Origin: Fibrobacter sp. UWEL
GTDB taxonomy: Bacteria; Fibrobacterota; Fibrobacteria; Fibrobacterales; Fibrobacteraceae
DNA length: 33,898 nt
Direction: 5' to 3'
NCBI RefSeq assembly: GCF_900142535.1
Contig: NZ_FRBE01000027.1
Coordinates: 1 to 33,898, forward strand
The notes under the pieces were generated by a model that saw only the letters and a list, made by a program, of their open reading frames with translations, had not been told where the DNA came from and made no database searches. Position 1 is the stretch's first letter, and each line of letters opens with the position of its first letter. This document shows positions 31,784 through 33,590 of the stretch, one piece after another. Made by a program: the position numbers and the translations under genes.

Positions 31784-31812
31784 GTTATTTCTTATAGCCG
31801 GTCAAAAAAATG

Positions 31813-31844
31813 AAGGGCCGCGCCTTCACTGGTGCGACCCTTTT
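31813..31844. terminator. Orphan terminator-like hairpin between divergent genes
   Basis: AAGGGCCGCGCC pairs with GGTGCGACCCTT (one mismatch, one G-U) around TTCACT. Seven A flank the left side and TTTT the right side, so it could stop transcription both ways. No gene ends here. Confidence 0.5.
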
Positions 31845-31893: not shown

Positions 31894-31935
31894 GGGTAAT
31901 GTTGACAGAGAATCATTCAGTAATGTATATTACCC
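31894..31935 (+). promoter_or_regulatory. Promoter with flanking inverted repeat, toxin-antitoxin operon
   Basis: TTGACA (31902-31907), 18 nt, TATATT (31926-31931) is a sigma-70-like promoter, unlike the TAnnTTTG boxes elsewhere. GGGTAAT (31894-31900) and its exact complement ATTACCC (31929-31935) bracket it, one arm overlapping the -10. This is a candidate operator for autoregulation. Confidence 0.5.
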
Positions 31936-31954
31936 TGTAGAAAAGGAGCTTGAT

Positions 31955-32134
31955 ATGTCGAATGCGGAAGCTTTGCACCAACTATTTGCGCAATGTCAAA
32001 AGATCAATTTTGACGAGTCCTATGATATTATCGCTTCTGCCCAAAGTCAGGACGAGGCTGACTTCTTTCGCCTTGCAACGGATTTGATTCTCAAACAGAA
32101 GCAGAAAAAGGTCGTCGAAGAGAATCGGTTCTGA
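31955..32134 (+). CDS. Small protein, candidate antitoxin of the zeta-like kinase
   Basis: A 59-aa acidic/helical protein (start MSNAEALHQLF, middle INFDESYDIIASAQSQDEADFF, end KQKQKKVVEENRF). AAAAGGAG lies 7 nt before the ATG. Its TGA overlaps the next ATG by one base (TGATG), so it is translationally coupled to the zeta-toxin-like kinase. Small size, order (small gene first) and coupling are the usual type II toxin-antitoxin layout. It has no recognisable DNA-binding motif, and I do not recognise the family; it does not clearly resemble epsilon or PezA. The role is inferred from context. Confidence 0.7.
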   Translation: MSNAEALHQLFAQCQKINFDESYDIIASAQSQDEADFFRLATDLILKQKQKKVVEENRF

Positions 32135-32679
32135 TGAAACGATATATTCTTTTTGCTGGATGCAATGGCGTCGGAAAGTCAACTCTCTATCAGACGAACG
32201 AGATGTTCCGCGAGATGCCTCGCGTCAACATGGACGAAATTGTTCGCGAGTTTGGCTCATGGAAAAATGAGGCCGACGCATTCAAGGCTGGAAAGATTGC
32301 AATTTGCAAGATCAGGGAGTACTTTTCGCTTGGCCTTTCGTTTAATCAAGAGACGACGCTTTGTGGACAATCTGTGTGGAAAAATATCCGGCAGGCGCGC
32401 CAACTTGGCTACAGGATAGAAATGTACTATGTTGGGGTCCAATCTGTCGAAATTGCCAAGGAAAGAATACGAGGCCGTGTTTTAAAAGGTGGGCACGGTA
32501 TCCCGGATGCCGATGTCGAACGTCGCTTTATCGAGTCTATTGAAAATCTTCAAAAAGCCATTCAGCTTTGCGACGTAGTTGAAGTATTTGACAATACGGA
32601 AACATTTATTCGCGTTGCGCGCTTTGAATGTGGTCAATGTGTTTTGAGAACGGAAGGCGTGCCGGACTGGGTTCCGTAA
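32134..32679 (+). CDS. Zeta-toxin-like P-loop kinase
   Basis: The 181-aa protein has a Walker A motif GCNGVGKST (residues 9-17), N32-M-D34-E matching the catalytic-aspartate strand of zeta/PezT kinases, SFNQETTL, and GGHGIPDADVERRF with the arginine-rich ATP/substrate lid typical of the compact zeta-like family. VEVFDNT closes the fold. Zeta toxins phosphorylate UDP-N-acetylglucosamine and block wall synthesis; compact relatives may use other substrates. The partner is the overlapping 59-aa gene. An RHS tip begins 17 nt after the stop. Toxicity itself is not demonstrated by sequence. Confidence 0.8.
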   Translation: MKRYILFAGCNGVGKSTLYQTNEMFREMPRVNMDEIVREFGSWKNEADAFKAGKIAICKIREYFSLGLSFNQETTLCGQSVWKNIRQARQLGYRIEMYYVGVQSVEIAKERIRGRVLKGGHGIPDADVERRFIESIENLQKAIQLCDVVEVFDNTETFIRVARFECGQCVLRTEGVPDWVP

Positions 32680-32696: not shown

Positions 32697-33590
32697 ATGA
32701 ACAATACGACTTGTGAAACATGCCAGCGCAAGCAGGGCACGACGAATGTAGCCCTTGACGAGTTCTACCTCAAGAATCACCTCGGCAGCACGGTCGCTGT
32801 GATGGACAATGGGGCTGTAAGCACGCTTAAGGCCGCCTACGACTACCGCGCTTTTGGCGAGCAGGTAGATTTGGAACAGAAAGGTGACAAGGTCACCGAG
32901 AACTTCACGGGCAAATGTCCTCAAGGTGAGTGCAGCGAAAATACACTTGTGTATTTTCATTGCCGAGCCGCTGGACATAGCGCTTTGCGCCAGGAGAAGG
33001 ATGACGAAACCGCGCTCAACTACTTCGGCGCAAGATATCTCGACCCCATGCTCGGATTGTGGATTTCAGTTGATGCAGCAAGACAGTACCAGAATCCGTA
33101 TCTATATGCTGGCAATAATCCTATTATGCGTACTGATCCCGATGGGAATCAGGATGCTACAGCTTTGGGATGGAATATATTTGTTCGTGAACAGGAAGCT
33201 AATTTTAGAGGAGCTGCGTCAAAACTTGTTGATAAGAGCGAAGAATATGGTAATAAGGCCCTTGAATTTGCAAAAGATGAAGGTGTGGATATAGGTGTGG
33301 ATATAGCGTTGGTTACATTGGCAGTAATCCAGCCAGAACTAGCTCCGTTATGTGCTGATGCTTTGCTTGTAAAAGGGGTGGCTCAGGGGATAATGAATGA
33401 TTCTCCAGGTCAGGTGTTGACCTCTACAGTAGGTTTTTTCATTCCTGGAGTGAATTCGGTTGGAAAAGCACTTGGCATTTACGCAGTAGAAAAAATTGTC
33501 AATGAAACTGTTGTCAATCCTTTCTTAGATGAAGATTTTGAAACAAAAAATATAGATATGCAAAAGAATTACAACGATTATGCCGAGTAA
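32697..33590 (+). CDS. Orphan C-terminal tip of an RHS protein (truncated)
   Basis: A 297-aa fragment. The first 130 residues are the end of an RHS repeat-associated core: DEFYLKNHLGSTVAVMD, AAYDYRAFGEQV, NFTGK, NYFGARYLDPMLGLWISVD, NPYLYAGNNPIMRTDPDGN. The long YD-repeat barrel that normally precedes this is absent; upstream sequence is the zeta-kinase gene. After DPDGN comes a 140-residue variable domain with helical and hydrophobic stretches (VDIGVDIALVTLAVIQPELAPL, VLTSTVGFFIPGVNSVGKALGIYAVEKIV) that could insert in membranes; no nuclease or deaminase motif is seen. A 26-codon insertion (32916-32993) splits the FTGKE motif. The ATG at 32697 has only a weak upstream TTGAGG, so expression is uncertain. 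It may be a displaced polymorphic-toxin cassette or a decaying remnant. Confidence 0.75.
   Translation: MNNTTCETCQRKQGTTNVALDEFYLKNHLGSTVAVMDNGAVSTLKAAYDYRAFGEQVDLEQKGDKVTENFTGKCPQGECSENTLVYFHCRAAGHSALRQEKDDETALNYFGARYLDPMLGLWISVDAARQYQNPYLYAGNNPIMRTDPDGNQDATALGWNIFVREQEANFRGAASKLVDKSEEYGNKALEFAKDEGVDIGVDIALVTLAVIQPELAPLCADALLVKGVAQGIMNDSPGQVLTSTVGFFIPGVNSVGKALGIYAVEKIVNETVVNPFLDEDFETKNIDMQKNYNDYAE
32916..32993 (+). repeat. In-frame 78-nt insertion with perfect palindrome in the RHS tip
   Basis: Between the K of NFTGK and the E of EKDDETALNYFGARY, which are contiguous in RHS proteins, there are 26 extra codons. They contain a perfect inverted repeat, GAAAATACAC, TT, GTGTATTTTC (32937-32958). 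The insertion keeps the frame and adds two Cys-containing peptide stretches (CPQGECSEN, YFHCRAAGHS). It has the look of a palindromic protein-coding repeat. Confidence 0.6.

What the first reader, a model, noticed from the sequence alone, without database searches (positions are those of the whole stretch)
31894..32679. Possible new small partner of a compact zeta-like kinase
The zeta-like kinase overlaps by one base a 59-aa protein of no recognised antitoxin family. Known zeta antitoxins (epsilon, PezA) look different. A sigma-70-like promoter bracketed by an exact inverted repeat adds a likely autoregulatory site. Together this looks like a complete and little-described toxin-antitoxin module.
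Basis: partly seen in the sequence, partly recalled or inferred. Interest (0 to 1): 0.65.

Follow-up and report, generated by a model that had tools for sequence, protein, structure and literature searches.

The report
Conserved small partner of zeta-like kinase
A Fibrobacter genome carries a two-gene module, a tiny 59-residue protein plus a compact kinase shaped like the zeta toxins, and the tiny protein turns out to be an unnamed family that precedes such kinases in at least three bacterial phyla, which makes it a likely antitoxin of a new type for a known kind of toxin.

Summary
In detail: a 59-aa ORF (31955-32134) overlaps by one base a 181-aa zeta-like kinase (32134-32679), behind a near-consensus sigma-70 promoter. 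In Fibrobacterota every intact close kinase (9 loci) has the small gene directly upstream. A profile made only from Fibrobacter copies picks out, among 2,269 ORFs, the ORF directly upstream of related kinases in Fusobacterium, Enterococcus and Lactobacillus plasmids and in a viral contig; the reverse search recovers the Fibrobacter copies. Sixteen members match no Pfam, NCBIfam, PHROGs or PDB family. The kinase model (pLDDT 94) matches zeta, PezT and AvrRxo1 over nearly its whole length. The small gene often survives where the kinase is deleted or broken; no intact kinase of the close Fibrobacterota group lacks it. Best reading: a type II toxin-antitoxin module of the zeta kind with a previously unnamed three-helix antitoxin family. 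UNAG-contacting residues of zeta are mostly absent, so the substrate is open. The promoter-bracketing inverted repeat is not conserved and is common by chance; autoregulation is unsupported. Toxicity and neutralisation are untested. Related Campylobacter kinases lack the partner.

The parts
31902..31931 (+). sigma-70-like promoter (TTGACA-18-TATATT) of the operon; the -10 region is conserved in relatives
   Evidence: 11/12 match; TATATT kept in 8 of 9 upstream regions, TATCTT in the ninth
31894..31935 (.). inverted repeat GGGTAAT/ATTACCC around the promoter; probably incidental
   Evidence: exact, but chance-level frequency and absent from all but the 98%-identical relative
31942..31948 (+). 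Shine-Dalgarno-like AAAGGAG
   Evidence: read; purine-rich GGAG-type site kept in most relatives
31955..32134 (+). 59-aa small partner, proposed antitoxin; predicted helices 3-16, 19-27, 32-58; Q50 kept in 14 of 14 paired members and C-terminal F59 in 13 of 14
32134..32679 (+). 181-aa compact zeta-like kinase, proposed toxin; Walker A GxNGxGKS (K15), D34, E73, T75, R111, R115, R131 invariant in the 14-member alignment

Best explanation
The locus is a type II toxin-antitoxin module of the zeta kind. The upstream 59-aa three-helix protein is the antitoxin, made first from the shared promoter and translationally coupled to the downstream kinase. The kinase is a minimal zeta-fold phosphotransferase (zeta core without the C-terminal extension) that, when free, would phosphorylate a small essential metabolite and stop growth; the antitoxin would hold it inactive by direct binding, by analogy with epsilon/zeta and Arc1/AvrRxo1, where the partner occludes the ATP site. 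Shown: the operon, its conservation across phyla, the predicted kinase fold and conserved catalytic motif residues, purifying selection on both genes, and decay of the kinase with the small gene kept. Inferred: toxicity, direct binding, site of inhibition. Open: the substrate; most UNAG-contacting residues of zeta are not conserved.
For: Pairing: 9 of 9 intact Fibrobacterota kinases of the >=50% identity group have the small gene immediately upstream. Cross-phylum: a Fibrobacter-only profile against 2,269 ORFs ranks the ORFs next to the kinases in L084, L067, L074, L068 and L064 at E 8e-9 to 7e-5, just below the separately found L063 domain; the Bacillota/Fusobacterium profile finds the Fibrobacter copies at E 7e-15 to 1e-6 and L085 at 3e-6; profile-profile probability 97.6%, E 4e-12. 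Partner and kinase distances correlate (Mantel r 0.86, 0 of 10,000 permutations; subset r 0.51, 16 of 10,000). On the kinase tree the partner label needs 2 changes against 14.4 when shuffled. Fold: model pLDDT 93.9; zeta 1gvn/3q8x, PezT 2p5t and AvrRxo1 4z8v at Z 15.1-16.1 over 163-178 of 181 residues. Selection: dN/dS 0.05 (kinase) and 0.08 (small) for window versus L003, and 0.02-0.18 for other small-gene pairs where dS could be computed, several of those dS values being near saturation. Asymmetric decay: small gene intact while the kinase is gone or broken in L011, L035, L036, L044, L048, L049, L053, L054, and kinase broken in plasmids L072, L080, L082. Many relatives sit on mobilizable or conjugative plasmids beside replication or relaxase genes, or beside canonical zeta modules.
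Against: No toxicity, binding or neutralisation data. Closely related kinases in three Campylobacter plasmids have no such partner. The kinase fold also matches bacterial polynucleotide kinase (Z 17.2), so a repair or metabolic kinase with a small subunit is not excluded. The decay asymmetry is weak statistically: the kinase gene is three times longer and the loci are not all independent. No structure of the pair could be predicted.
Confidence: 0.72

Rival explanations
1. The kinase is a housekeeping or repair phosphotransferase (polynucleotide- or nucleotide-kinase-like) and the small protein is a positive subunit or adaptor needed for its activity or stability.
For: Best structural Z score is Clostridium thermocellum polynucleotide kinase, 17.2 over 157 residues; UNAG-contacting residues mostly absent.
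Against: Patchy distribution (14 of 168 genomes hold a clear copy of the small gene), plasmid and mobile context, small gene kept without a kinase, zeta/AvrRxo1 matched over more of the chain (171-178 residues, including the C-terminus).
Confidence: 0.15
2. An anti-phage (abortive infection) device built on a zeta-type pair: the small protein is the sensor or labile inhibitor that releases the kinase on infection.
For: Marginal matches of the kinase to PADLOC defence models; relatives are present on viral contigs.
Against: The PADLOC matches are weak and limited to the P-loop end; no defence gene was identified among the neighbours examined; no phage data.
Confidence: 0.08
3. The small protein is not an antitoxin but an independent small regulator that became linked to the kinase; the operon is only co-transcribed.
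For: Solitary copies are common in Fibrobacter, and a 152-aa Enterocloster protein carries the domain at its C-terminus with no kinase beside it.
Against: Adjacency and order are the same in Fibrobacterota, Fusobacteriota and Bacillota, and partner divergence tracks kinase divergence. Solitary copies are also what antitoxins that outlive their toxin look like; L035 and L037 keep the first and last codons of a deleted kinase.
Confidence: 0.05

Closest known systems
epsilon/zeta (pSM19035; 1gvn, 3q8x)
   Same: Small helical antitoxin gene upstream, zeta-fold kinase downstream, plasmid context of relatives; kinase aligned over 171-172 residues, Z 16.0-16.1
   Different: Partner is 59 aa and not related to epsilon by profile comparison (probability 0.5%); kinase lacks the C-terminal ~90 residues of zeta; only 1 of 5 UNAG-contacting positions conserved (alignment)
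PezAT of Streptococcus pneumoniae (2p5t)
   Same: Zeta-fold kinase, Z 15.1, chromosomal two-gene operon
   Different: PezA has an N-terminal DNA-binding domain (own knowledge); no such domain is recognised in the 59-aa partner
AvrRxo1:Arc1 (4z8v; PMC4938570)
   Same: Zeta-fold kinase over 178 of 181 residues at 2.6 A; small helical antitoxin; UNAG contacts also poorly conserved
   Different: Arc1 homologues are mostly 81-98 aa, encoded downstream of the toxin, with a double-tyrosine motif not seen here; AvrRxo1 is a longer type III effector
ng_zeta1/ng_epsilon1 (PMC5923241) and PezAT-Mtb Rv0366c-Rv0367c (PMC6362051)
   Same: Non-canonical zeta modules in which the substrate or the antitoxin departs from the classical pair
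   Different: Rv0367c is reported with an RHH domain and PezA/epsilon signatures; the present partner shows no similarity to an epsilon sequence or to a known domain. Not compared directly here

Membership tests
zeta-fold kinase family (PF06414) | Sequence match to the Zeta_toxin profile above its curated cut-off | tested here: met
   24.0 bits against cut-off 22.3 for the window kinase; 48-50 bits for the Fusobacterium and Lactobacillus relatives
zeta-fold kinase family (PF06414) | Zeta fold with Walker A and conserved catalytic residues | tested here: met
   Model pLDDT 93.9; Z 15-16 to zeta/PezT/AvrRxo1; K15, D34, R111, R115 invariant. Equating D34 with zeta D67 is inference by motif position; the profile alignment shifts there
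canonical UNAG-kinase zeta toxins | UNAG-contacting residues E100, T118, R120, T121, T128 (list from PMC4938570) | tested here: not met
   In the hhalign alignment they face I57, T75, C77, G78, N84: one of five kept
epsilon antitoxins (PF08998) | Similarity to epsilon | tested here: not met
   No PF08998 hit where the Enterococcus epsilon scores 91 bits; profile comparison with that epsilon 0.5%
PezA antitoxins | N-terminal DNA-binding domain plus epsilon-like C-terminal part | tested here: not met
   59 aa with no DNA-binding Pfam or NCBIfam hit; no direct comparison with a PezA sequence was made
type II toxin-antitoxin module | Two-gene operon, small gene first, translationally coupled, conserved as a pair | tested here: met
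   (coupling inferred from overlap or abutting codons)
type II toxin-antitoxin module | Kinase is toxic alone and neutralised by direct binding of the small protein | not testable with these tools
   needs expression and co-purification
type II toxin-antitoxin module | Antitoxin (or complex) represses its own promoter; common but not universal | tested here: inconclusive
   Inverted repeat not conserved and at chance frequency; no DNA-binding domain found; a TAAT-N4-ATTA core at the -10 is only partly kept

The most novel reading that the evidence does not exclude
The small proteins are an undescribed antitoxin family, spread over Fibrobacterota, Fusobacteriota and Bacillota, dedicated to compact zeta-fold kinases that act on a substrate other than UDP-N-acetylglucosamine.
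Probability: 0.4. Interest if true: 0.6.

Novelty: new variant of a known kind. Interest (0 to 1): 0.48.

Why it matters
Zeta-like kinases are common on plasmids and chromosomes and are often annotated alone as 'zeta toxin family protein' with a nameless ORF in front. A profile for this partner family would give many of them an immediate, testable antitoxin, and shows that kinases of this fold have acquired yet another unrelated candidate neutraliser. The small zeta core also offers a simple system in which to find the substrate of zeta relatives that lack UNAG contacts.

Tried and rejected
Autoregulation by the inverted repeat: not supported. Similarity of the small protein to epsilon: none. 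A structural relative of the small protein in the PDB: best Foldseek E 2.9, so nothing reportable for a 59-aa helical model; a PDB sequence profile gave nothing convincing. Relation of the partner to the 63-aa partner of other Fibrobacterota zeta-like kinases (L027, L031): not detected by the profiles. Viral collection with the small-protein profile alone: nothing; with a Bacillota profile: no stretch conserved enough to search with. Joining both proteins into one chain for a pair prediction: a read-through of L085 was translated and aligned, but the aligner misplaced the small proteins and the tool returns no coordinates, so the last prediction went to the small protein alone. Literature: no paper found that names this partner (open-access library only).

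Full report
What is there. The ORFs, their one-base overlap, the promoter and the inverted repeat are at the stated coordinates. The genome is a Fibrobacter: the nearest held relative, 98% identical in both proteins and of the same genus, is a Fibrobacter sp. MAG from horse faeces. The kinase scores just above the Zeta_toxin cut-off of Pfam; the small protein matches nothing in Pfam, NCBIfam or PADLOC.

Conservation inside the phylum. In 168 Fibrobacterota genomes the close kinase group (52% identity and more) has nine intact members: window, G089, G091, G114, G144, G097, G094, G090, G080. All nine have the small gene directly upstream with the same order and near-zero spacing. A tenth kinase (G128) lacks an internal stretch and its proper start, with the small gene intact. 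G143 holds only a kinase fragment, its Walker A serine changed to phenylalanine, and no small gene was seen there. Small genes without a kinase are frequent: L048, L053, L054, L049, L035, L036, L044. In L035 and L037 the kinase has been cut out so that its first and last codons remain (L037's small gene is itself frameshifted), and in L049 only the first codons remain. Two pairs of solitary copies show dN/dS about 0.14, so they have been under purifying selection for at least part of their history. Copy counts are small and not independent, and the kinase gene is three times longer, so I treat the asymmetry as supportive and not as proof.

Conservation outside the phylum. tblastn with the kinase on plasmids found relatives at roughly 35-47% identity in Fusobacterium, Campylobacter, Enterococcus and Lactobacillaceae. 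A profile built only from Fibrobacter small proteins was run, unfiltered, against all 2,269 ORFs of at least 30 aa in the non-Fibrobacter loci and the distant Fibrobacterota kinase loci. Apart from an Enterocloster protein that had been found by its own similarity, the significant hits are exactly the ORFs immediately upstream of the kinases in L084, L067, L074, L068 and L064, and the next ones (L085, L082, L080, L073; E 0.02-0.25) are also the upstream ORFs. The reverse profile, built only from Fusobacterium and Bacillota members, finds the Fibrobacter copies. Profile-profile comparison agrees. The aligned family has one invariant residue, Q50 of the window protein, and a nearly invariant C-terminal F59. 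Distances in the two proteins correlate, which fits a pair that travels together.

Limits of the pairing. The kinase tree puts the partner-bearing kinases together with three Campylobacter kinases that have no such neighbour. Other zeta-like kinases in Fibrobacterota and on plasmids have different or no small partners. The partner therefore marks one kinase clade, not all zeta-like kinases.

Fold and catalysis. AlphaFold2 gives the window kinase pLDDT 93.9. The structural relatives covering most of the chain are zeta, PezT and AvrRxo1 (163-178 of 181 residues, Z 15.1-16.1); bacterial polynucleotide kinase scores slightly higher over 157 residues. Walker A and the basic and acidic residues expected for catalysis are invariant in the 14-member alignment. 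Of the five zeta residues that contact UDP-GlcNAc (listed in PMC4938570), only T118 has an equivalent in the profile alignment. AvrRxo1 shows the same lack, and that paper reports that it does not phosphorylate this substrate, so I do not assume UNAG. The small protein is predicted as three helices, the last one long (pLDDT 80, five sequences), with no convincing relative of known structure.

Regulation. The -10 hexamer TATATT is kept in 8 of 9 aligned upstream regions, solitary copies included, so the promoter is probably real. The bracketing repeat is kept only in the near-identical relative and such repeats are frequent by chance. I do not support an autoregulatory site.

Mechanism. The most likely reading is a type II toxin-antitoxin module of the zeta kind: antitoxin first, coupled kinase second, direct inhibition. 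Everything about toxicity and binding is inference from fold, order, mobility and decay pattern. It works like epsilon/zeta; as to membership, the kinase belongs to the zeta kinase family, the partner does not belong to the epsilon family, and the kinase fails the residue test for canonical UNAG kinases.

Novelty. No curated family and no open-access paper found here names the partner. Several other zeta antitoxins are already known (epsilon, PezA, Arc1, Rv0367c, the EzeT domain), so this is a new variant of a known kind.

Noticed in passing
L067 1281-3446 (Enterococcus plasmid NZ_CP033739.1): The small partner and compact kinase sit inside a canonical omega-epsilon-zeta operon, between epsilon (PF08998) and zeta (PF06414); the same 61-aa partner is on 8 Enterococcus plasmids. 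The kinase is unannotated there.
   Followed up: partly
L064 652-2660 (Fusobacterium hwasookii plasmid): A canonical 300-aa zeta gene lies directly before the small partner and compact kinase, so a long and a short zeta module stand in tandem in a second phylum.
   Followed up: partly
L063 1737-2195 (Enterocloster bolteae plasmid pCbo51): A 152-aa protein whose C-terminal third is a clear member of the small-partner family (E 1e-15) with no kinase beside it; near an ADP-ribosyltransferase and an integrase.
   Followed up: no
L027 48-239 and L031 1196-1495: Other Fibrobacterota zeta-like kinases are overlapped by a different small protein with a shared YRxxSxDEPxxExLxxLMxEVA-like motif, possibly another unnamed partner family.
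   Followed up: no
L004 1501-3232 (G091): The partner-type kinase and a kinase of the other (L027-like) type lie close together and convergent.
   Followed up: no
window 32697-33590; L056 1715 and 3888; L012 558: Rhs core-end fragments (YFGARYLDPMLG) adjoin the module in the window, in G089 and at the G143 remnant, but were not seen at the other loci, suggesting an Rhs-tip hotspot.
   Followed up: partly
L072, L080, L082 (Lactobacillaceae plasmids): The kinase is broken by a stop or frameshift while the preceding partner ORF is still present; several further plasmid hits come in two pieces.
   Followed up: partly
window 31809-31836: Terminator-like hairpins on both strands between the DUF5662 gene and the module.
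   Followed up: no
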